DNA from: Spirochaetota bacterium
GTDB taxonomy: Bacteria > Spirochaetota > UBA4802 > UB4802
Assembly (NCBI GenBank): GCA_040756435.1
Contig: JBFLZD010000033.1
Location: 1-42,779 of the forward strand
Direction: 5' to 3'
Length of the DNA stretch: 42,779 nucleotides
Part shown: positions 6,749-42,779 of the stretch, piece by piece
How positions within the stretch are numbered: the stretch's first letter is position 1
Layout: each line of letters starts with the position of its first letter
Made by a program: the position numbers and the translations under genes
Notes under the pieces: model-generated
Told to the model about the DNA's origin: nothing
Seen by the model: only the letters and a program-made list of their open reading frames with translations
The model's database searches: none

Positions 6749-6979
6749 AAAAAACCTCCTGCTTTTAAATTATAACAAATGTTAAAATATTACACATTCA
6801 GGTGTATGTTAAGATTTAATGCACATACACACAAATACATTGTTACGCTACAATACGGTATTTTTCTGTCAATAATGAAAATATATTTTTTTGTATAATT
6901 TATTTCAAACATACGAAAAAATATATTTTATCGTCTTAAAACTGATATGTACATATTTATTAAATTGTAAATTGCTTTA
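6749..6979. other. AT-rich upstream region, no gene seen
   Basis: This is the very AT-rich leader and promoter region of paralogue 2. No terminator, RNA gene or reading frame was recognised. It ends where the composite repeat begins. Confidence 0.5.
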
Positions 6980-7391
6980 TCCATCTCTGCGGTCTCTGTG
7001 TGAGACAATCTGATGCATCACGCAGAGTACGCAGAGTGCGCTGAGTTATTGGAGAGATAGCTGGATTTTGGGGCAGATACTTAATGGATAGGATGACTTG
7101 TTGCATATACGTCATTCCGGTCATCTCTTTTTGTCATTTCGAGCGTAGCGAGAAATCTTTGCTTCACTCTTTAAGATTTCTCAGTCACTTCGTTCCTTCG
7201 AAATGACAGAGTAATACCGTCATTCCGGGCTTGACCCAGAATCTTTATCCTCACCATTGTGGATCCTGAATCGAGTTCAGGATGACTGCACTGAATCAAT
7301 CCTGAAATAAATTCAGGACATGGTTCAGGATGACACACTGTTATTCATTACAAAACCCCGAAGGGGTGATATTATTGTAAGATGTCAGAGC
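6980..7391. repeat. composite intergenic repeat, copy 1
   Basis: First of two direct copies (the other is 7401-7835). In order it holds: an imperfect palindromic block rich in CGCAGAG (6985-7055); a long inverted repeat that starts GTCATTTCGAGCGTAGCG and ends CTTCGAAATGAC (7133-7207); a second palindromic block built on GTCATTCCGGGCTTGACC and TCAGGATGAC (about 7220-7286); and a CCCC-GAA-GGGG hairpin with the tail TGATATTATTGTAA (about 7355-7382). It ends with GTCAGAGC. No protein is encoded. It looks like several small non-autonomous elements nested or stacked together. Confidence 0.85.
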
Positions 7392-7400
7392 TTCACCCTC

Positions 7401-7835
7401 TCCATCTCTGCGGTCTCTGTGTGAGACAAACTGATGCATCACGCAGAGTACGCAGAGTACGCTGAGTTATTGGAGAGATAGTAGGATTTTGAGGCAGATA
7501 CTTAATGGATAGGATGACTTGTTGCCTATACGTCATTCCGGTCATCTCTTTTTGTCATTTCGAGCAATCCTTTATGTCATTTCGAGCGTAGCGAGAAATC
7601 TTTGCTTCCCCCTTTAAGATTTCTTAGTCACTTCGTTCCTTCGAAATGACAGAGTAATACCGTCATTCAGGGCTTGACCCGGAATCTTTATCCTCACCAT
7701 TGTGGATCCTGAATCGAGTTCAGGATGACTGCACTGAATCAATCCTGAAATAAATTCAGGACATGGTTCAGGATAACATGCTGCTATTCACTAAAAACCC
7801 CTGGAGGGGGTGATATTATTGTAAGGGGTCAGAGC
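7401..7835. repeat. composite intergenic repeat, copy 2
   Basis: This copy parallels copy 1 over its full length with scattered substitutions. One clear difference is a ~23-bp partial duplication of the GTCATTTCGAGC segment just before its inverted repeat at 7576-7650. Its hairpin is CCCCTGGAGGGG with the tail TGATATTATTGTAA, and it ends GGGGTCAGAGC. The order of sub-elements is the same, so the whole block was duplicated after assembly. Confidence 0.85.
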
Positions 7836-7850
7836 ATATATTCATAACAA

Positions 7851-31981: not shown

Positions 31982-33067
31982 TTAATTTTGTATTTTCAAA
32001 CCACACCACCCAGCAGGTATTTCTCCACGAATCAACGAACGTGAAACACCACCATATAGGTTAACCTCTGGAGGGATGGCTTTTTTTTGTTTAATTTTAA
32101 ATGTTTTTGATTCAATCTGTGTAAAACGGCCTAACCGCAAAGGTATTAATTCATTTGAATTACATACAGTAGTTATATTTTCTTTTACTTTTGGATCTAT
32201 TGGATGTTTTTTATTATTTAATATTTCCAGGTTAAAATCCATCAAACTCTTCATTATGAATTCAATATTAAGAAAATCCCCTAATTTATAATTATTAACA
32301 AACTTTTTTAATCCATCTTCATCAATGGTAATTTCTCCTTCAGCAATGCATTCATCTTTATTTATATAGTGGCTAGCTGACATCTCAGTATAGATGGGTA
32401 TTCCTTTTTGCTGCTTACCTTTTCCAATTATCCTCACGGTATCTAAAAGAACCGTTTGGTTTTTAAACATTAAATCTGATACTTTCATAAACCTGAAAGG
32501 ATCAAGTCCTATATCAAATATTGCATTAGTATCTTTTTTCATTATTTGCATTTCGAAATCAGTTGATTGAAAATTTTTTGGTTTATTATTTTTAAATAAT
32601 TTAACATTGGGATACATATTATTTTTTTTTCTTAATGATTCCAGCAATGCTGTCCTTAATGCTCCTTTCAATGTTGAACCTGGAATATAAGGTTTCATGC
32701 TGAGTTCATCTTTAAAAATCTTATAAATTATTGCGTATGGATTGCTATCGACCCCTTGAATAAATTGGGGATGTGCCTGAACTCTTTGTATAATAACATC
32801 TAAATTTTGCAGTGCAACATTTTGCAGGATAGACCGTGCCCTCAAAAGCTTTTCTTTATCTTTTTTTATATCAGCAACAAGGGTATCCATAATGCTGAAA
32901 AATTGTTCTCTTTCTTTCTGGCTCATGAAATTAAAAGCTTTATTAAAATCAATAAGCATTATGGACTTTCCATCTTTAGTTGGCAATAATTCAAATATAC
33001 TATAAAATTCGCCGCTATGTATGATAAGTGGTGTAATGATATGTATTTTAACGGTATATGATTTCAT
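31982..33067 (-). CDS. csm5: type III-A CRISPR RAMP protein Csm5
   Basis: A 361-residue Cas7-like subunit that caps the crRNA 3' side of the Csm complex. The RAMP motif YIPGSTLKGALRTAL (about residues 135-150) and a C-terminal GGVSRSLIRGEI.AGW region fit Csm5. It is the last gene of the cas6-cas10-csm2-csm3-csm4-csm5 operon. AGGGGT lies upstream of the ATG. No csm6 or other CARF effector follows: the next 500 bp hold only a gene relic. Confidence 0.88.
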   Translation of the reverse strand: MKSYTVKIHIITPLIIHSGEFYSIFELLPTKDGKSIMLIDFNKAFNFMSQKEREQFFSIMDTLVADIKKDKEKLLRARSILQNVALQNLDVIIQRVQAHPQFIQGVDSNPYAIIYKIFKDELSMKPYIPGSTLKGALRTALLESLRKKNNMYPNVKLFKNNKPKNFQSTDFEMQIMKKDTNAIFDIGLDPFRFMKVSDLMFKNQTVLLDTVRIIGKGKQQKGIPIYTEMSASHYINKDECIAEGEITIDEDGLKKFVNNYKLGDFLNIEFIMKSLMDFNLEILNNKKHPIDPKVKENITTVCNSNELIPLRLGRFTQIESKTFKIKQKKAIPPEVNLYGGVSRSLIRGEIPAGWCGLKIQN

Positions 33068-33117
33068 ATAATAATACCCCTACTACTACTCATTAATTCT
33101 ATAAATAGCAACATCAA

Positions 33118-34071
33118 TCATGTTGTTATACCAACATCATTAGAATAATCAAAATATACAGGATAGGCATAAGCATATTGCCGTATTCTATAATCTGTGT
33201 GGACATTGTTTAGTAATTTACCATTTTTACCATTAGTTGTAAAAAACGTTGACCCAGCTTTATACAATACTATGGGCTTTTTATTAAAAAGCAACTGCCC
33301 ATTTATACCTTTTTGACTAAATTCTCCACCTAATTTGCCATACTTTGTTATTGTAGTATAACATAACGGTTGAAGGTTTTGACCAGCACAATCACTTAAC
33401 GTAACAAAATACTTTCCCTGGTACCCAAAAATGTTTTTTTCAATTACATCTAATTCATCAATTTTGACATCAAATATCCCTTTACCAGTAGAAGCATCAC
33501 TACCAAATCCCATCTGACAAGCTGTAAAAAATGCATTTTTAAAAATATCAGAATAACTGTCATCAAATTCAGTTACGTATACATTGTAACACATGCCATC
33601 CACGTTATTATAATAATAACTATTAGTAAATAATACCCCTTTCCTTACCATACCCGTAATACGGCTTATTGAGTTTCTTGTGATATCTATCTGACCTGGT
33701 TCAATTTTTTCTATTTCTGGAAGGTTAAGCTCTTGTATCAATAAATCTTGATTATAATCTTTTTGATATTTTTCAAATAATTCTAGCGAGATACATTTCA
33801 AATTTTTTAGTTTTTTATCACTTTCTATTTCTGAAATTGAATCCTTTAATGTAAAGGTTAATTGTGGCTTGTACATATAACCTTGCGGTATAAGTGAAGA
33901 AATAATAATTGGAATTGAATTGTTATCATATTCTTTAAGAAAGGATATTAGTGTATTTTCGCCATATAGAAATCGAATATACCAACATACAGTCCCAAAA
34001 ATTGTATCAGCAGAAAATATATCAGAAAACAGTGAAAGTGGTTTTAAAATATATTTATATTGCCGTTTCAT
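33118..34071 (-). CDS. csm4: type III-A CRISPR RAMP protein Csm4
   Basis: A 317-residue Cas5-like subunit that binds the 8-nt 5' handle of the crRNA and joins Cas10. The early SDIFSADTIFGTVCWYIRFL stretch (about residues 15-34) is typical of Csm4. A Gly-rich segment, FGSDASTGKGIFDV, lies mid-protein. It sits 11 bp after csm3 and 50 bp before csm5. Confidence 0.88.
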   Translation of the reverse strand: MKRQYKYILKPLSLFSDIFSADTIFGTVCWYIRFLYGENTLISFLKEYDNNSIPIIISSLIPQGYMYKPQLTFTLKDSISEIESDKKLKNLKCISLELFEKYQKDYNQDLLIQELNLPEIEKIEPGQIDITRNSISRITGMVRKGVLFTNSYYYNNVDGMCYNVYVTEFDDSYSDIFKNAFFTACQMGFGSDASTGKGIFDVKIDELDVIEKNIFGYQGKYFVTLSDCAGQNLQPLCYTTITKYGKLGGEFSQKGINGQLLFNKKPIVLYKAGSTFFTTNGKNGKLLNNVHTDYRIRQYAYAYPVYFDYSNDVGITT

Positions 34072-34082
34072 CTTTGTATAAC

Positions 34083-34727
34083 CTATGATAATGGTTCATC
34101 GTCAAGATATAAATCTTTAAACTGAATCTTACCATAACCTCTGCTTCCACTCCCACCTAATGCATCCTTTTCAAGGAGTTTGAGCCCTTCTCGCAATAAA
34201 TCAGTTATTTCCTTCCCATCCCCATCTTCTTTGAATATTCGTAGAGAAATTTCAAAATTAAATGATAATCCTGCTATAACTCGTTCTGACTGACGAGGAT
34301 TTAAAGCTCTACCTTTTATTCTATCTATAGTATTTTCTGTTTTTGCTTCGGTGGCCAATATATTGCGTTGTTTGAGCAATTCAATTGATTCGTCATCTAG
34401 AAAAGCATCCCTGAAAATTGCTCGTGTAATACCAACTTCTGAATCTTTATTGGTATTACCAAATGTTTTACAAATATGACACTTCCCACAATTACATGGT
34501 CCCCCTTTTTCCTTATCAAACTTATCCATATGAAGTTCCAAGAGACTACGTATTTTACCTTTAAGTGAAGAACCAGGTATATAAGGATAACCAGTTTTAG
34601 GGTCCTTAATTACAGGGTTATCAATACCACCAATTTCAATACCTTCAGTACCTCCGCCAATATGAAGTCCTGTCTTTAAATATATCTTTCCTTTAATTTT
34701 TTTAATTGTTAAATTTGCTATTTCCAT
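34083..34727 (-). CDS. csm3: type III-A CRISPR backbone protein Csm3
   Basis: A 214-residue Cas7-like subunit that forms the filament backbone and cuts target RNA at 6-nt steps. The probable catalytic Asp is Asp36 in GGIDNPVIKDP. YIPGSSLKGKIRSLLE and the C-terminal GSGSRGYGKIQF are the RAMP landmarks, and CNCGKCHIC is a probable zinc site. AAGGAGG precedes the ATG. With the Asp intact, target-RNA cleavage should be active. Confidence 0.93.
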   Translation of the reverse strand: MEIANLTIKKIKGKIYLKTGLHIGGGTEGIEIGGIDNPVIKDPKTGYPYIPGSSLKGKIRSLLELHMDKFDKEKGGPCNCGKCHICKTFGNTNKDSEVGITRAIFRDAFLDDESIELLKQRNILATEAKTENTIDRIKGRALNPRQSERVIAGLSFNFEISLRIFKEDGDGKEITDLLREGLKLLEKDALGGSGSRGYGKIQFKDLYLDDEPLS

Positions 34728-34748
34728 ATATTTTCCTCCTTATCTGAT

Positions 34749-35153
34749 TCATTTCTGGAATTTTTGAGTTTTTGTTTTACCTTCAACTTCTGAAATATAT
34801 GTATAATACGCTATTATTGCCTGGTAATGCATCAAAAATATTTTAAAATCAGAAATTGTTTTTATCTTATCTATTTCTTCATCCATATATTCTTTATAAT
34901 CATTTGATACCAAAAACTTATTATTTGATTTTCTACCTGCACTGTAGGCAATCTTTGATTTTATAAATTTAATATGGGGTAAAATTTCTTTTTCAAACCA
35001 CGCATCATTTGCATCTTGATTTTCATCTATTTTCCGCTCAATAATCTTAAAATCATCATAGAACTTCCGTATCTGGTTTTTATCAATATTGATAAAATCC
35101 GCTGCTTTTTTCTCAGCATCTTTTGTTACATATGATTCGGTTAATTCTATCAT
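34749..35153 (-). CDS. csm2: type III-A CRISPR small subunit Csm2
   Basis: A 134-residue, Lys/Glu-rich, all-helical small subunit. KNQIRKFYDDFKIIERKI near residue 30 is the family's most recognisable stretch. The ATG lies 2 bp beyond the cas10 stop codon, so the two are coupled. Position and size support the call more than sequence does. Confidence 0.85.
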   Translation of the reverse strand: MIELTESYVTKDAEKKAADFINIDKNQIRKFYDDFKIIERKIDENQDANDAWFEKEILPHIKFIKSKIAYSAGRKSNNKFLVSNDYKEYMDEEIDKIKTISDFKIFLMHYQAIIAYYTYISEVEGKTKTQKFQK

Positions 35154-35155
35154 TG

Positions 35156-37540
35156 TTATGCCTCCTTATGATTTATTTCTTTTTCTCGTGTTTCATATAA
35201 TGCTAATGAAATAATTGTTTCCAGAATATATGGCTTTAAACGTGAATAATCTTCAAAACACTGCTCAAGATATTGCAACTCTTCTTTATTTACCAATTGG
35301 CCATCTTTTTTAATTATTATATTCCTGCTAACGTCATATTTAAAATATGGAATATATATTAAATCCTCTGATGGTTTAAACTTATTTCTATATACCTTTT
35401 TTGCCATACGTGAATACTTCAGCAATCTGTATAAAAAAGAATGGTTAATTTTTGATTCAACACTATTATTTTGCTCAATAAACCATTGGGCTTTTTGATG
35501 TATATCACGTAATTGATCATATGAAATTACATTAAAATAATGTATTCTATTCCTACCACCATCTTTCGCTTCTTTTAATTTTTCTTCTGCCATGAGTGCA
35601 CTTTTGCTCATAGGATAATCAGGTTTTTGAATATATGTTCCGGTTGAGAAATGCAAATCCGGATGGTTACATACAAATTCTTTAAATTTTCTTTCAACAG
35701 TATCCATGAAATCTATTACTTGATTCCATGGAGCTATAACAAATAAATCATCTCCACCAGAAAATACTGTATAGATATTGGAAAATTCTTTTTGTAAAAC
35801 ATCTTTTATTACAAGATTAAAAAAAACATTGAACATCCGTGATAGTGTAACATACCGTGATACCGAAAGATCCTGTATGCCCTGGCTAAATATACTACCC
35901 ATGTTATCTACATCAAGTTTGATGTATGCTAAAAAAGCAGAGCCTACACCTCTTTTTTTATTATTATCTTTATCATTATAATATATTATAGCTGATTCTG
36001 CTATTTCTTTAAATTCTAATGTTTTATTATCCTTTTGAGGAACATAATTATTATACATTAGAAATGGTAGGTTTGAATCATTATCAAAACTAAAAGCACT
36101 AATAATGTTTTCATTAGAATTTAATGTATCTACAATGCTCATTGATATTTTTTCATTAAAATAGTTTACATCTCCACGCCTTTTACTAAAAAGAACAATA
36201 CTATTTTTAGTAATTTTAGAACCTATTTTAAACATTTCATCACATGAATTGCATCTTTCTTCTTCATGACCCGGCACAGGTGAATACCTACCACAAGATT
36301 TGCATAATTCACCTTCGTCATAATTTATATCAATAATACAATCTCCATTTTTTAATATATTATAAAATTTACGCGATTTAGCTATAGCCAATTTGTAATT
36401 TATTGTTTTGATAACATTACCAAATGATTTTAATTTCATCTCATCCTGAGAGGCTTCTAAACTATAATCATAAACTACGGTGAAATCGCCATGGAATGTA
36501 TTGAAAAACCATTTATCTGCCTCTTGAGTAAATTTCCTTATTGTATCTTTTATGTGTGGTAAATTTGGCAAAATAAGAGTAAATTTTCCACCTGCATTCA
36601 TCAATTGAACAAAGGGTGGTATTCCTAATGTATCACAAAGAGCATAGCAGTATGCCTGAGCTATCATAGCAACATATAATGATCGCCCTCTTATTATCTT
36701 TGATGAACCAGGAAATGCTTTTTGTTGATGCTGAAAAATAAATTGCTGGATACCTGATAGGTCACCTGCAAAAAATAGAAATGGTTTATCTGTAGTGCTC
36801 CCTTCATCGTGAAGTACTTTTAATACTAATGCTATTGCTGCTGTCGTTATAGCATGATCATATAAAGAAATGTCACAATATTTGTCATTTGTTGCTGATG
36901 GGATACACCAGCAATATTTTTGCAATAATGAAATAATATTATTAACAAAGTGATTTAAACCATATACTGGTTTATATTGTTGTATAGATTTTTCTAAATC
37001 TTTAACAAATGCACCCCATAATGTTTTATATTGATCCGCTAATATTGTAGTCTCTTCTTTTATTTCAAAAGGATATACGTTTTCAGGAGTTAAAGGTTTT
37101 AAATTATACCCATAAAGTGTATTAATACTTTTACTTAATGATATTCGGGTAAATACTGATCGCAAGTGACGTTTAAAATGACCACCCTTAACGTAATCTG
37201 TTTCATCACTGCGGTCACTTGCAGCAGATATGTTATCGGCTAAATCTATAATGCTTTCATCAGGAGTACTTGCATTATGATGTTTTGCAGCAAGATTCTT
37301 TACTTTTATCCAATCAAGTTCTCTTGGCAGATTTATTGTTTTACAGTCATTTTCAAAAAAGTCATATGTCCATAAAGCATGACGATGTGAATATCTACCG
37401 CTACTATGTGAAGGAAGTACAATAGCTTCAATTTCCCTTGGAAAAGCTGCATGTTCTTTGCCTTCATAAGCTCTTTCTTTAAATTTTCCTATGTCATGAA
37501 ATAATGAAGCAATTATAATTTCATAATACTCTTTTTTCAT
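35156..37540 (-). CDS. cas10: type III-A CRISPR large subunit Cas10/Csm1 with HD and GGDD
   Basis: A 794-residue multidomain effector. The N-terminal HD nuclease is intact (His15-Asp16 in LFHDIGKF), so target-dependent ssDNA cleavage is likely. The first palm domain shows AGDLSGIQQFIF (about 260-271). A zinc finger has CKSC and CNSC. The second palm carries GGDD at 595-598, the site that makes cyclic oligoadenylates. A helical C-terminal domain ends the protein. AGGTGTG precedes the ATG. Both activities therefore look alive, although no cyclic-oligoadenylate-activated effector is encoded in the window. Confidence 0.95.
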   Translation of the reverse strand: MKKEYYEIIIASLFHDIGKFKERAYEGKEHAAFPREIEAIVLPSHSSGRYSHRHALWTYDFFENDCKTINLPRELDWIKVKNLAAKHHNASTPDESIIDLADNISAASDRSDETDYVKGGHFKRHLRSVFTRISLSKSINTLYGYNLKPLTPENVYPFEIKEETTILADQYKTLWGAFVKDLEKSIQQYKPVYGLNHFVNNIISLLQKYCWCIPSATNDKYCDISLYDHAITTAAIALVLKVLHDEGSTTDKPFLFFAGDLSGIQQFIFQHQQKAFPGSSKIIRGRSLYVAMIAQAYCYALCDTLGIPPFVQLMNAGGKFTLILPNLPHIKDTIRKFTQEADKWFFNTFHGDFTVVYDYSLEASQDEMKLKSFGNVIKTINYKLAIAKSRKFYNILKNGDCIIDINYDEGELCKSCGRYSPVPGHEEERCNSCDEMFKIGSKITKNSIVLFSKRRGDVNYFNEKISMSIVDTLNSNENIISAFSFDNDSNLPFLMYNNYVPQKDNKTLEFKEIAESAIIYYNDKDNNKKRGVGSAFLAYIKLDVDNMGSIFSQGIQDLSVSRYVTLSRMFNVFFNLVIKDVLQKEFSNIYTVFSGGDDLFVIAPWNQVIDFMDTVERKFKEFVCNHPDLHFSTGTYIQKPDYPMSKSALMAEEKLKEAKDGGRNRIHYFNVISYDQLRDIHQKAQWFIEQNNSVESKINHSFLYRLLKYSRMAKKVYRNKFKPSEDLIYIPYFKYDVSRNIIIKKDGQLVNKEELQYLEQCFEDYSRLKPYILETIISLALYETREKEINHKEA

Positions 37541-37568
37541 ATATCACACCTAATAAAACGATAATAGG

Positions 37569-38495
37569 TCATACAACCTGTATAGCTCCAAATCCAAATG
37601 ATGTGTTATTCCCAATATTAATAATTTCTCCAATCTTTAATAATGGATATATTGATTCAACATTCCCAGAAAAGATTGCTTTACCTTTATACCCACTTAA
37701 TGGCATTTTTTGATTCCTTCTTTTAGAATATCTTTCAATAAATTCTAATCTAATATCCTGTGATACACAATGTATTGAATTAAAATCAATGTTGCTTATA
37801 TCTACTATGACGGGATTGTTCTCAAAAAAATAGGAAATAATTTCAATTTTTCTTCTAATATTTTTTATAATAGTTTCAATATCAACGTATTTCTGATATT
37901 TACCATTTGATTTGATTTTACATGGCGTTAAAAATGAAATTTCTAATGTATCAGAAATGTAATCATTATTGCAACATGAAAATGCTTTAAGATCACTTAA
38001 TTGGATGGTTTCTCCATTATATATTATGGAATTGCTTGCATAATCATGTATGCTTTTTATTGTAAATCTTCCTCTTTTAATGCCTATGCCTTTTTCACCC
38101 AATTCCATGAACGCATGGAGAATATTTGGAAAATATTTAAATGCATCACCAAAAAGTGAAAACTTAAAGGTAAAAGTATCACCCTTTTCAAATTGAACAG
38201 GGTAATCAAATAAAGGAGTCAATGCAAAAGGATGGGGTATATATTCAGATTGGCTCATCTTTTCAGAAGGTTTTATATTGGGAGTTTCAAAAATTATGGC
38301 ATAAACACACATAGTTACCAGGGGGCATTCTATACAATACTTATGTTGTTTCATAATACATACAGAATTCTTCAATGCAACACCAAAACCACCTCTTAGC
38401 GCAATTCCTGGGAAATTTGGGAATGTTATTTGTGTAACAACTTCACAGTTAACTTTTAAAGCATATATATGTAAATTACGTAAAATATCCCACAT
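37569..38495 (-). CDS. cas6: CRISPR precursor-crRNA endoribonuclease Cas6
   Basis: A 308-residue RAMP-fold nuclease that cuts the precursor CRISPR RNA in each repeat. It carries the ALRGGFGVALKNSVC and C.EC...C.YAIIFETP region of the Cas6 group with a Cys cluster, and a Gly-rich C-terminus (GNNTSFGFGAIQV). An in-frame TTG at 38,588 would give 339 residues, but homologous Cas6 proteins start close to the LRNLHIYALKV strand, so the ATG at 38,495 is preferred even though it lacks a clear Shine-Dalgarno. It is the first gene of the cas operon. Confidence 0.86.
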   Translation of the reverse strand: MWDILRNLHIYALKVNCEVVTQITFPNFPGIALRGGFGVALKNSVCIMKQHKYCIECPLVTMCVYAIIFETPNIKPSEKMSQSEYIPHPFALTPLFDYPVQFEKGDTFTFKFSLFGDAFKYFPNILHAFMELGEKGIGIKRGRFTIKSIHDYASNSIIYNGETIQLSDLKAFSCCNNDYISDTLEISFLTPCKIKSNGKYQKYVDIETIIKNIRRKIEIISYFFENNPVIVDISNIDFNSIHCVSQDIRLEFIERYSKRRNQKMPLSGYKGKAIFSGNVESIYPLLKIGEIINIGNNTSFGFGAIQVV

Positions 38496-38560
38496 GATTG
38501 GTATTTTATATATTATATTTTTTATAACTTGTAAAAAAATTAAACTATACTTTTTATCTA

Positions 38561-38588
38561 ATATTATAATATGACATTTTTTTGTCAA
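38561..38588 (-). promoter_or_regulatory. candidate promoter/operator of the cas operon
   Basis: On the minus strand TTGACA (38583-38588), a 16-bp spacer, then TAATAT (38561-38566). The -35 overlaps a perfect inverted pair TGACA...TGTCA (38572-38587) that a repressor could bind. The predicted leader is ~60 nt. Confidence 0.5.
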
Positions 38589-39445: not shown

Positions 39446-39903
39446 ATCCCCGGATAAAATGACATAAATAAACCGCAAGCACTATATAGCAAACTCCTAT
39501 CTATCCCACTGATGGGAAGGCATTATTGCACCGTAATCAATATAACCACCATATCTAAATCCACATAGTGGTGTCATTATTGTCCACAAGCTACATATCT
39601 CCACACCACCCAACCCACGGAGTGGGTGACACTATTGTAACAGCTCAATATAATCACCTATACAACCCCCAGCGGGATGACATTACTGTAACAGCTATAT
39701 ACAACCATCTAATCAATCCCTTGGAGGATGACATTATTATAACCACAAGCTGAGTAACACACCACCCAATCCACGGAGTGGGTGACACTATTGTAACAGC
39801 ACTAAACAACCATCTCATCCATCCTCAGCGGGGATGATATTATTGTAACCACCTAACTGAGTAACACATCATCAAACCCACGGAGTGGGTGACATTATTG
39901 TCT
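39446..39903. repeat. hairpin-repeat array 1 (nine units, ~54-bp period)
   Basis: Nine units start at about 39446, 39504, 39559, 39613, 39665, 39716, 39769, 39821 and 39876, so the spacing is 51-58 bp. Each is a short stem-loop (for example ACCCAC-GGA-GTGGGT) followed by a conserved tail close to TGACATTATTGTAA. Stem sequences differ between units but stay paired, including some T-G pairs. The sequences between hairpins are themselves related (CTGAGTAACACA twice, ACAACCATCT twice), so this is a degenerate tandem array and not a CRISPR with unique spacers. A 62-codon frame through it (39568-39753) is an accident of the near-multiple-of-three period. Confidence 0.85.
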
Positions 39904-40140
39904 TAAGGCTAACTTGAGTGTTTCGTAAAATAATATACAGTAACAAGTAATGTTTTATTATTGTTACCCTCACATTAATGGTTTTATTATAAAATTTTTT
40001 CAAAAATTTTAAAAATTTTTTAATTTTTTTATTCCAAAAGCGTTGTATAGATATAAAACACTGTGATGAAATGCAAGATGTATGTATGTGTACTACAATA
40101 GCATTTTTATTTTATGCTACACGGTATGGCAAATATCATC
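39904..40140. other. AT-rich spacer, no gene seen
   Basis: A very AT-rich stretch (with an A/T-only run near 39,990-40,030) between hairpin array 1 and the promoter of the coiled-coil gene. No frame, RNA gene or repeat was recognised. Confidence 0.4.
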
Positions 40141-40169
40141 TTGACATTTCATTACCTATGTGTTACACT
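40141..40169 (+). promoter_or_regulatory. promoter of the coiled-coil gene
   Basis: A perfect TTGACA (40141-40146), a 17-bp spacer, and TACACT (40164-40169). The start would fall near 40,176, which supports translation from the ATG at 40,194. Confidence 0.6.
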
Positions 40170-40193
40170 TAATATATGGAAGGAGATAAAAAA

Positions 40194-40736
40194 ATGGGCC
40201 AACATTTCTCAGCCGATGTATATGACATCTTTGAAAAGGCGTTTCATGGTAAAGAATATGCCAAAAAGGTATTATACGCACTGGAAGAGGTTATAGTGGA
40301 TACAGTACATGACACCTGGTATAAAACAAAAGAGGAACTAAAGGCAGAAGTTTTAAGTCATTATGCTACCAAGCAAGATTTGGAACAGGTACGTATTGAA
40401 CTTTTAGGAAAATTAGATGCATTATATCAAAAAACAGAAAGGGATAAAGCTGAACTACTTGGCATAATGAAGCAGGATAAGGCTGAGCTTGTAGGAGCAC
40501 TCCAACAAACCAGAGAAGAACTTTTAGGTATTATGAAGCAAGATAAAGCTGAATTGCTGGGAAAATTTGATGCATTGTATCACAAAACAGAAAAGGATAA
40601 AGCTGAAATTAATTTACGAATTGAGCATTTGGATAAAAAATTCAGTATTTATTTTGCAGCGTTATTTTTTATTGTCATTTTCTTAAATCAGAATGCTTTA
40701 GAATTTTTGGTAAAAGTGATAGGCTTGGTTAAATAG
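40194..40736 (+). CDS. coiled-coil protein with C-terminal membrane anchor (DUF1640-like)
   Basis: A 180-residue protein. After an N-terminal helix pair, residues ~55-150 form a long Glu/Lys/Leu coiled coil with YATKQDLEQVRIELLGKLDA and internal duplications (ELLGIMKQDKAEL twice, ALYQKTERDKAEL / ALYHKTEKDKAEI). A single membrane helix (IYFAALFFIVIFLN) ends it. It resembles the multi-copy DUF1640/CCDC90-like family. GGAAGGAG lies eight bases before the ATG at 40,194, which decides against the ATG at 40,176. It has its own promoter and terminator, lies between two hairpin-repeat arrays, and has a broken relative at 31,710 on the other side of the cas operon. The function is unknown. Confidence 0.8.
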   Translation: MGQHFSADVYDIFEKAFHGKEYAKKVLYALEEVIVDTVHDTWYKTKEELKAEVLSHYATKQDLEQVRIELLGKLDALYQKTERDKAELLGIMKQDKAELVGALQQTREELLGIMKQDKAELLGKFDALYHKTEKDKAEINLRIEHLDKKFSIYFAALFFIVIFLNQNALEFLVKVIGLVK

Positions 40737-40765
40737 ATTGTTTGTGGTGCATATATTTATAAAAA

Positions 40766-40798
40766 AACACAGGTAAATTTACTCCCTGTGTTCTTTTA
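40766..40798 (+). terminator. terminator of the coiled-coil gene
   Basis: AACACAGG (40766-40773) pairs with CCTGTGTT (40785-40792), and a T-rich run follows. It is 30 bp beyond the stop codon. Confidence 0.8.
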
Positions 40799-40920
40799 TT
40801 ATTATACATTATATTAAATTAATAGATCACATAGTTAAATAGTAATGCTTATGACTATAAATTGATAATGAAGTCAAATTTTTCTTCATACACCGCTGCC
40901 AACAACATCACAAACCCACC

Positions 40921-41508
40921 AACCCCAACGGTGTGACATTATTTTCAAGACATTCACCCGCCAAAATAAAAAACCCACAGAGTGGGTGACATTATTTTAA
41001 ACACCAGCAAAATATCACCACCCCACTGAACCCCGGAGGGGTGGCATTATTATAATCCCAGCAGTAGTGAAACATAACATAATCCCTGGAAGGGATGACA
41101 TTATTGTAACCACCTAGCGGAATATCACCACCCCACTGAACCCCGGAGGGGTGGCATTATTGTAAACCCCCTATCAGCGGGGTGCTTTGACTAGCGCTTA
41201 CTCCATCCCATCAACGTGCTCAGCAACCTCATCCATTGCTATTCATCACCGAACCCCCAAGTGATAGCATTATTTTCCATCCCCTTTGCGCCACCATCGA
41301 ACTCGATTGTTAAAAGCGTCACAACCCCAGAGGGGTGTAATTATTGTAACTACCTAGCGGAATGACACACCATCACAACTCCGGAGGGGTGGCATTATTG
41401 TAAATCCCCGTAGTAGTGAAATACAACAAAATCCCTGGAGGGGATGACATTATTGTAACCACCTAGCGGAAAATCACCACCCCACTGAACCCCAGCGGGG
41501 TGACATTA
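40921..41508. repeat. hairpin-repeat array 2, running into the CRISPR
   Basis: Units start at about 40921, 40972, 41029, 41081, 41139, 41252, 41323, 41377, 41430 and 41488, mostly 51-58 bp apart, with one decayed stretch (41,190-41,320). Stems include ACCCC-GGA-GGGGT, ATCCCT-GGA-AGGGAT, ACCCC-AGA-GGGGT and ACCCC-AGC-GGGGT, each followed by TG[AG]CATTATTGTAA. The words CACCTAGCGGAA and AGTAGTGAAA recur between units. At 41165-41190 a segment CCCCCTATCAGCGGGG closely resembles the core of the CRISPR repeat. The last unit continues without a break into the first, degenerate CRISPR repeat. Confidence 0.85.
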
Positions 41509-42779
41509 TTGTAAACCCCCTATTAGCGGGGAAGTTTTCCTACCAGAATTTTCAAAGTTTAAAAACTCTGTGAATATGCTATCAACGTCTCAATCCCCTA
41601 TTAGCGGGGAAGTTTTCCTACTTTTGTAATTTCTGAAAGTGAAAAAGGTAAAAAAAGATTTCGTCTCAATCCCCTATTAGCGGGGAAGTTTTCCTACACG
41701 ATAAAGATAATATGAAAAACTTCTTTATTAAAGTAAGAGGTCTCAATCCCCTATTAGCGGGGAAGTTTTCCTACTTTTGTAATTTCTGAAAGTGAAAAAG
41801 GTAAAAAAAGATTTCGTCTCAATCCCCTATTAGCGGGGAAGTTTTCCTACACGATAAAGATAATATGAAAAACTTCTTTATTAAAGTAAGAGGTCTCAAT
41901 CCCCTATTAGCGGGGAAGTTTTCCTACGAGTGAGTAAACCGTCCTCAACGTCCTCTTTCTTATCCCTGGTCTCAATCCCCTATTAGCGGGGAAGTTTTCC
42001 TACCATAAATGGTAGCAAAGACAAGATTAATAAGCTTGATAAAAAGTCTCAATCCCCTATTAGCGGGGAAGTTTTCCTACGGGGAGTCTGTAGTCGGTAC
42101 GATAGTGACCGACGTTAATACCAAGTCTCAATCCCCTATTAGCGGGGAAGTTTTCCTACATTTTTATGAGAGCAAACCATATGTGAGAATGACTGGACGC
42201 AGTCTCAATCCCCTATTAGCGGGGAAGTTTTCCTACTCAAAGGCAATGTAGCAAAGATAAATGGACTGGATAAATCTAAGTCTCAATCCCCTATTAGCGG
42301 GGAAGTTTTCCTACTAGTAATTTTGTTCCTGGAAAGGGTGGAGTAAGGGGTAAGGTGTCTCAATCCCCTATTAGCGGGGAAGTTTTCCTACGATTATGTT
42401 TATAAGTTGGAATTCACTAAAAAGGGTTTGTCTCAATCCCCTATTAGCGGGGAAGTTTTCCTACCAATTTTATTATATTTATATCATAAATTTAAACAAG
42501 AAAAGTCTCAATCCCCTATTAGCGGGGAAGTTTTCCTACCATACTAAACTAACGGAGGTTGTAAAATGAATTATCGGTCTCAATCCCCTATTAGCGGGGA
42601 AGTTTTCCTACGATAACGCAATATCCAGAAATATGTATGTTAGAAGCAGGGTTGGTCTCAATCCCCTATTAGCGGGGAAGTTTTCCTACCATAAATGGTA
42701 GCAAAGACAAGATTAATAAGCTTGATAAAAAGTCTCAATCCCCTATTAGCGGGGAAGTTTTCCTACGGGGAGTCTGTAG
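41509..42779 (-). CRISPR. CRISPR array, 16 full 35-nt repeats plus one degenerate, open at the window end
   Basis: The plus-strand repeat starts GTCTCAATCCCC, has TATTAGC in the middle and ends GGGGAAGTTTTCCTAC (35 nt). Full copies start at 41587, 41663, 41740, 41816, 41893, 41969, 42046, 42125, 42202, 42280, 42357, 42430, 42505, 42577, 42655 and 42732. The copy at 41509-41543 has a changed outer end. Spacers are 37-44 nt. Read on the minus strand the repeat ends ATTGAGAC, a good 8-nt type III crRNA handle, and the degenerate copy becomes the last repeat. So transcription is inferred to be leftward, with the leader beyond the window to the right. Two spacers are duplicated in tandem and another recurs at the end. 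Confidence 0.97.
41587..41927. repeat. tandem duplication of two spacer-repeat units in the CRISPR
   Basis: The 153-bp unit 41622-41774 (two spacers and two repeats) is identical to 41775-41927. Counting the shared repeat, the exact match is 188 bp. The two spacers begin TTTTGTAATTTC and ACGATAAAGATA. Confidence 0.95.

What the first reader, a model, noticed from the sequence alone, without database searches (positions are those of the whole stretch)
39446..41508. Regularly spaced hairpin repeats with compensating stem changes
About 19 short stem-loops stand 51-58 bp apart in two arrays around the coiled-coil gene. Stem sequences vary (ACCCAC/GTGGGT, ACCCC/GGGGT, ATCCCT/AGGGAT, CCAC/GTGG), yet both arms change together and some units keep T-G pairs. 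The tail TGACATTATTGTAA and the ~54-bp step are conserved. Covariation points to selection on a folded RNA or single-stranded DNA, not on the letters. Many loops are GGA, so one possible reading is a multi-site RNA sponge for a CsrA-type protein; others are REP-like elements or a structural DNA array. Two single copies also lie inside the composite repeats at 7.36 and 7.79 kb, so the unit is dispersed. All functions here are inference.
Basis: partly seen in the sequence, partly recalled or inferred. Interest (0 to 1): 0.82.

Follow-up and report, generated by a model that had tools for sequence, protein, structure and literature searches.

The report
Tandem REP-like hairpins, transposase-linked elsewhere
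The evenly spaced hairpins next to this CRISPR locus are copies of a short repeated DNA element that, in distant bacteria, surrounds genes for a single-strand-DNA (IS200-like) transposase previously reported to have no such companion repeats, so they look like an amplified mobile-type DNA repeat and not like an RNA sponge.

Summary
In detail: about 17 clear hairpin+tail units (plus 1-2 degraded ones) stand 51-57 bp apart at 39.45-41.51 kb, all on one strand, and the stem arms co-vary far above shuffles. The unit is a 27-nt core (AA + stem-triloop-stem + TGACATTATTRTAR) with sharp edges. It is scattered and arrayed in this genome (72 model hits) but not found in 58 relatives. The same unit and step occur in Bacteroidota and Ignavibacteria, where it flanks genes for a Y1 HUH (IS200-like) transposase with the Y---Q--HH motif ("subclass 1.2", which the literature lists as having no REP sequences). 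Around 30 such genes chosen by protein alone, triloop hairpins are dense within 500 bp and nearly absent beyond 600 bp. I read the arrays as orphan REP-type ssDNA hairpin elements: this genome keeps only remnants of the matching transposase, though its other REP-associated transposase genes carry solo copies. The CsrA-sponge reading is not supported: loops are not conserved as GGA, the CsrA context is lacking, and wobble pairs show no strand bias. The coiled-coil gene is probably a passenger. How arrays grow (ssDNA insertion of monomers, or unequal recombination) is inferred, not shown.

The parts
39504..39903 (+). Hairpin array 1: eight units, tails at 39518, 39572, 39627, 39678, 39729, 39783, 39835, 39890; steps 51-55 bp
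40176..40736 (+). Coiled-coil gene (186 aa, C-terminal hydrophobic segment) between the arrays; probable passenger
   Evidence: homologues in G001, G003 and G000:C9 lack arrays; a near copy at C16 has them
40922..41165 (+). Hairpin array 2, first part: five units, tails at 40934, 40987, 41042, 41096, 41152
   Evidence: two of its monomers (110 bp) are absent from the C16 paralogue
41252..41279 (+). Degraded unit
   Evidence: family D6
41324..41514 (+). Hairpin array 2, second part: four units, tails at 41336, 41390, 41445, 41501; the last tail abuts the terminal CRISPR repeat
7353..7380 (+). Solo unit (ACCCC-GAA-GGGGT + TGATATTATTGTAA) in a composite repeat
7795..7824 (+). Solo unit in a composite repeat, followed by GGGGTCAGAGC
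41509..42779 (-). CRISPR array, trailer end (transcribed towards lower coordinates; leader seen only in paralogous loci)
31982..38588 (-). Type III-A CRISPR genes: csm RAMP genes, csm2, cas10/csm1, cas6

Best explanation
The units are a family of REP-type extragenic hairpins: single-stranded-DNA substrates of Y1 HUH transposases of the IS200-like 'subclass 1.2' kind, present here as head-to-tail arrays without their cognate gene. Shown: one conserved 27-nt core with a co-varying stem and a fixed tail; the same core and the same 49-58-bp arrays flanking subclass-1.2 genes in distant phyla; only remnants of such a gene in this genome; solo copies beside the genome's own REP-associated transposase genes. 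Inferred: on the - strand the unit reads TTAC-AATAATGTCA-hairpin, a candidate cleavage end, then a conserved single-stranded stretch, then a hairpin, as at IS200/IS605 ends. The transposase would cut at unit ends and join ~54-nt monomers at the end of an existing unit, which grows head-to-tail arrays; arrays also change by gain or loss of whole monomers. Next to the coiled-coil gene and the CRISPR trailer the arrays are most likely passengers.
For: Same unit and step in Bacteroidota and Ignavibacteria. Units flank Y1 genes on both sides, mostly inverted, in L101, L104, L108, L111, L113; 4 of 30 loci found by DNA pattern alone hold such a gene directly beside the units. Around 30 such genes chosen by protein only, triloop hairpins fall from 6.3 per kb (<100 bp) to about 0.1 per kb (>600 bp). 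All carry Y---Q--HH, nearly all WQ. Remnants of that gene here, an intact one in a same-genus genome with nearby hairpins. Solo copies in the flanks of the genome's own Y1 genes, one of which scores as REP-associated tyrosine transposase. Sharp unit edges; monomers end at the tail, and a two-monomer difference separates paralogous loci.
Against: No intact subclass-1.2 gene is assembled in this genome, so the link is by homology. Only 9 of the 30 protein-chosen genes carry the ATTAT-type tail; the others have other hairpin families. The canonical GT[AG]G foot is absent. The published survey found no REP for subclass 1.2. Array growth by unequal recombination would leave the same traces.
Confidence: 0.72

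Rival explanations
1. Ordinary minisatellite: a palindrome was duplicated and spread by unequal recombination and slippage, with arms equalised by template switching inside the hairpin; no transposase is involved in array growth.
For: Whole-monomer difference between paralogous loci; higher-order ~107-bp periodicity in array 1; covariation can arise from quasi-palindrome correction.
Against: Does not explain dispersed single copies, the same core and step in unrelated phyla or the proximity to Y1 genes.
Confidence: 0.17
2. Multi-site RNA: the arrays are transcribed and the hairpins titrate CsrA or another RNA-binding protein.
For: Many loops are GGA in this genome's arrays (36 of 67); a csrA gene exists.
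Against: GGA loop not conserved elsewhere (1 of 117) or in solo copies here (28 of 34 GAA); 3-nt loop without A(N)GGA context; no wobble strand bias; no Rfam match; promoter-like sites near chance (16 against 10.1 +/- 3.9).
Confidence: 0.04
3. CRISPR-related: the arrays are degraded CRISPR repeats or a functional trailer element of the III-A arrays.
For: Arrays abut the trailer-end repeat in C33, C16 and C19, and a degraded repeat in C83; both repeats have CCCC..GGGG stems.
Against: Step 51-57 bp against about 76 bp; linkers are a few shared types, not unique spacers; arrays at C19:17.7 kb, C24 and C45 have no CRISPR beside them in the sequence read; the CRISPR loci look like duplicates, so the junction may be a single event.
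Confidence: 0.06

Closest known systems
REP sequences / REPtrons of TnpA-REP (RAYT) proteins (PMC6006769, PMC8266576, PMC3733652)
   Same: Short extragenic hairpin with a conserved flanking tag, many copies per genome, flanking a Y1 HUH gene, sometimes in tandem clusters.
   Different: No GT[AG]G foot; the tag is a 14-nt tail; flanked genes are subclass 1.2 (Y---Q--HH), for which no REP was reported; arrays are evenly stepped (49-58 bp).
IS200/IS605 insertion-sequence ends
   Same: Hairpin with a conserved single-stranded stretch 5' of it on one strand, tied to a Y1 HUH protein of the same class; the TTAC end recalls the IS608 target (from memory).
   Different: No gene inside the unit, many tandem hairpins instead of two ends, cleavage site not tested.
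TIRYT / TIRtron elements (PMC3733652)
   Same: The genome's own Y1 genes are flanked by GGGGTCAGAGC, which fits GGGGWSAS, and solo units sit directly next to it.
   Different: The window arrays carry no such motif and no gene; the unit itself is a hairpin, not a terminal inverted repeat.
CsrA/RsmA-binding small RNAs
   Same: Several hairpins with GGA in the loop in a row.
   Different: Loop not conserved, no A(N)GGA context, no evidence of a transcript.

Membership tests
REP / REPtron (broad sense) | Short palindromic extragenic repeat in many copies in the genome | tested here: met
   49 exact-tail matches, 72 model hits
REP / REPtron (broad sense) | Flanks a Y1 HUH transposase gene | tested here: met
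   Met for the unit family in other phyla and for solo copies in this genome; the window arrays themselves have no such gene beside them
REP / REPtron (broad sense) | Recognised and cut as ssDNA by the cognate Y1 protein | not testable with these tools
   needs biochemistry
Canonical GTAG REP | 5' GT[AG]G tetranucleotide at the foot of the hairpin | tested here: not met
   Core profile shows AA before and TGACATTATTRTAR after the stem; no GTAG foot on either strand
Subclass 1.2 TnpA-Y1 (the flanked genes elsewhere) | DH[IV]H, WQ, Y---Q--HH, about 150 aa | tested here: met
   definition
Subclass 1.2 TnpA-Y1 (the flanked genes elsewhere) | No associated REP sequences (as published) | tested here: not met
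   Hairpins strongly enriched within 500 bp of 30 such genes; units flank several on both sides
CsrA-sponge RNA | A(N)GGA in hairpin loops, conserved | tested here: not met
   GGA in 36/67 here and 1/117 elsewhere; preceded by stem C
CsrA-sponge RNA | Discrete transcript | not testable with these tools
   no expression data
CRISPR array | Near-identical repeats separated by unique spacers | tested here: not met
   Stems vary and linkers recur as a few shared types

The most novel reading that the evidence does not exclude
Subclass-1.2 Y1 transposases, listed as having no REP sequences, do have their own hairpin family and propagate it monomer by monomer as about 50-55-nt single-stranded units inserted at the end of an existing unit, so that regular tandem arrays are the normal product; such arrays persist as orphans after the gene decays, here at CRISPR trailer ends.
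Probability: 0.35. Interest if true: 0.68.

Novelty: new variant of a known kind. Interest (0 to 1): 0.52.

Why it matters
It links an unassigned, cross-phylum repeat (AACCCCGNAGGGGTGACATTATTRTA) to a specific group of IS200-like Y1 transposases described as lacking IS and REP features, and it suggests why some REP-type repeats form evenly stepped arrays. The claim is directly testable in vitro with one small protein and a few oligonucleotides.

Tried and rejected
CsrA sponge: no consensus context, loop not conserved. Known RNA family: none in Rfam. G-T pairs as evidence for a + strand RNA: 6 on + against 10 on -, no bias. Coiled-coil gene as functional partner: homologues in G001, G003 and G000:C9 lack arrays. 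Degraded CRISPR array: wrong step and shared linkers. Viral origin: no match in viral contigs. The genome's own Y1 type as sole cause: those genes lie beside solo copies, not beside the long arrays. Literature: in the held library no paper links REP sequences to CRISPR trailers; of ten papers that print CCCCGAAGGGG, the one on a bacterial repeat has it inside Synechococcus CRISPR repeats, and the others, judged by title only, look unrelated; the only survey found for Y1 proteins and REP in Bacteroidetes is PMC6006769. Its supplementary table could not be read, so the 'atypical' REPs of its subclass 2.6 could not be compared. A first MAFFT alignment of mixed stem lengths put the gaps at the ends and was discarded for two length classes. 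No structure prediction was run; it would not settle DNA recognition.

Full report
Observation. The window is contig C33 of the genome. On the + strand, units of the form stem-triloop-stem-TGACATTATTGTAA stand at 39504-39903 (eight) and 40922-41514 (nine, with a degraded stretch between), with steps of 51-57 bp. The tail pattern occurs 19 times in the window with up to 3 mismatches against 0.19 expected. Fully paired stem types in this genome are ACCCC/GGGGT, ATCCC/GGGAT and ACCCA/TGGGT; elsewhere there are also ACCAC/GTGGT, ACTAC/GTAGT, AGCCC/GGGCT, ACTCC/GGAGT and others.

Covariation. With the tail alone as anchor and the spacing chosen in the same way for real and shuffled arms, 335 of 375 stem cells pair (shuffles 286 +/- 5, maximum 304); for units from other phyla it is 750 of 1040 (576 +/- 15, maximum 629). 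The pair-count tool, run on hand-picked units that favour paired stems, agrees: scores 0.290 and 0.353, no shuffle as high, slid partners fail. Caveats: units of one array are related, and arms of a quasi-palindrome can be equalised by template switching. Mismatches do not prefer G-T on either strand (6 on +, 10 on -), so the fold could be DNA or RNA.

Range in the genome. An exact-tail pattern gives 49 matches and none for the reversed control; a covariance model gives 72 hits in this genome and none in 58 relatives, four of them of the same genus, under the stricter filters used there. Two forms exist. (a) Tandem arrays: C33, C16, C8/C83, C19 (two), C24, C45. (b) Single copies, mostly with a GAA loop and directly followed by GGGGTCAGAGC, in the composite flanks of the genome's own Y1 transposase genes, upstream of the gene and in one orientation. 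NCBIfam names that protein type REP-associated tyrosine transposase (82.8 bits, cut-off 80), and its GGGGTCAG motif fits the GGGGWSAS repeats of TIRYT genes (PMC3733652).

Range outside. A scan of 257 Gb of genomes for CCCC-loop-GGGGTGNNATTATTGTAA gave 30 loci, nearly all Bacteroidota, Ignavibacteria or Chlorobiota; viral contigs gave none. Several loci hold arrays with the same step (steps of 49-58 dominate). The core is sharply bounded, conserved from -13 to +13 around the tail with background on both sides. The 3' edge coincides with the end of the search pattern, but the 5' edge (two conserved A) does not.

Link to a transposase. Y1 genes sought in those genomes with Pfam PF01797 are in several cases flanked by the units on both sides, mostly inverted: L108 (seven before, three after, step 50-57), L111 (six ATCCC units before, two after), L101, L104, L113; L107 has them on both sides in one direction. 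Four of the 30 pattern loci contain such a gene directly beside the units. The proteins carry DHxH or NHxH, WQ and Y---Q--HH, the signature of subclass 1.2 of Quentin et al. 2018 (PMC6006769), for which that paper's table says REP: no. To avoid circularity I took 30 of the best matches to one such protein from 199 genomes of one order, by protein alone (the first is the query's own locus): triloop hairpins occur at 6.3, 3.9, 4.7, 2.2 and 1.1 per kb in successive 100-bp bins from the gene and about 0.1 per kb beyond 600 bp. Nine of the 30 show an ATTAT-type tail; the others carry other hairpin families, such as CGACCCC(GGA)GGGGTCG repeats at L160.

In this genome the matching gene is only a remnant: a piece with a stop at C104 (FQWQ*GYGAFSYS...YIMNQE) and a short piece at C57. 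An intact one is present in a same-genus genome, with nearby hairpins of related form. The window arrays are therefore best called orphan, though a copy in an assembly gap cannot be excluded.

How arrays grow. Monomers of 51-56 bp end exactly at the tail; linker sequence goes with the following hairpin more than with the preceding one (r = 0.41 against 0.22). Array 2 of the window holds two monomers more than its C16 paralogue at that point. This fits insertion of single monomers at a unit's end, as expected if a Y1 enzyme cuts at the TTAC end seen on the - strand, but unequal recombination would leave the same mark. This step is inference.

Surroundings. The coiled-coil gene has homologues in G001, G003 and G000:C9 without arrays, so it is not tied to them, although coiled-coil genes also lie beside the C24 and C45 arrays. 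The arrays abut the trailer end of CRISPR arrays in C33, C16 and C19 and a degraded repeat in C83; the leader sequence shows which end is which. These loci look like duplicates, so one event may explain all; no function is claimed.

Verdict. The repeat is real and structured, and best read as a REP-type ssDNA hairpin family of IS200-like Y1 transposases. New here, as far as the held library shows, are the link to subclass 1.2 and the regular tandem arrays. The CsrA sponge is unlikely.

Noticed in passing
window 41509-42779; L032 (C16), L034 (C19), L043 (C83): Hairpin arrays abut the trailer end of several CRISPR loci; C19 and C83 look like a leader with a single repeat followed directly by the hairpin array.
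   Followed up: partly
window 41587-41892: A 153-bp block of two spacers and two repeats is duplicated exactly inside the CRISPR array.
   Followed up: no
window about 42612-42654; L095 (C10): A spacer of the window's CRISPR array also occurs in the C10 array, whose far end is interrupted by other sequence.
   Followed up: no
window 40176-40736; L032, L194, L188, L189: Coiled-coil genes of this family differ in the number of DKAELLGIMKQ-type repeats between copies and species.
   Followed up: no
window 40000-40070; upstream of Y1 genes in L033, L037, L042: Coiled-coil genes and the genome's Y1 transposase genes share an AT-rich upstream stretch followed by GCGTTGTATA.
   Followed up: no
window 6950-7840: Composite repeat made of several repeat modules separated by GGGGTCAGAGC-type motifs, the same modules as in the flanks of the genome's Y1 genes, but with no Y1 gene here.
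   Followed up: partly
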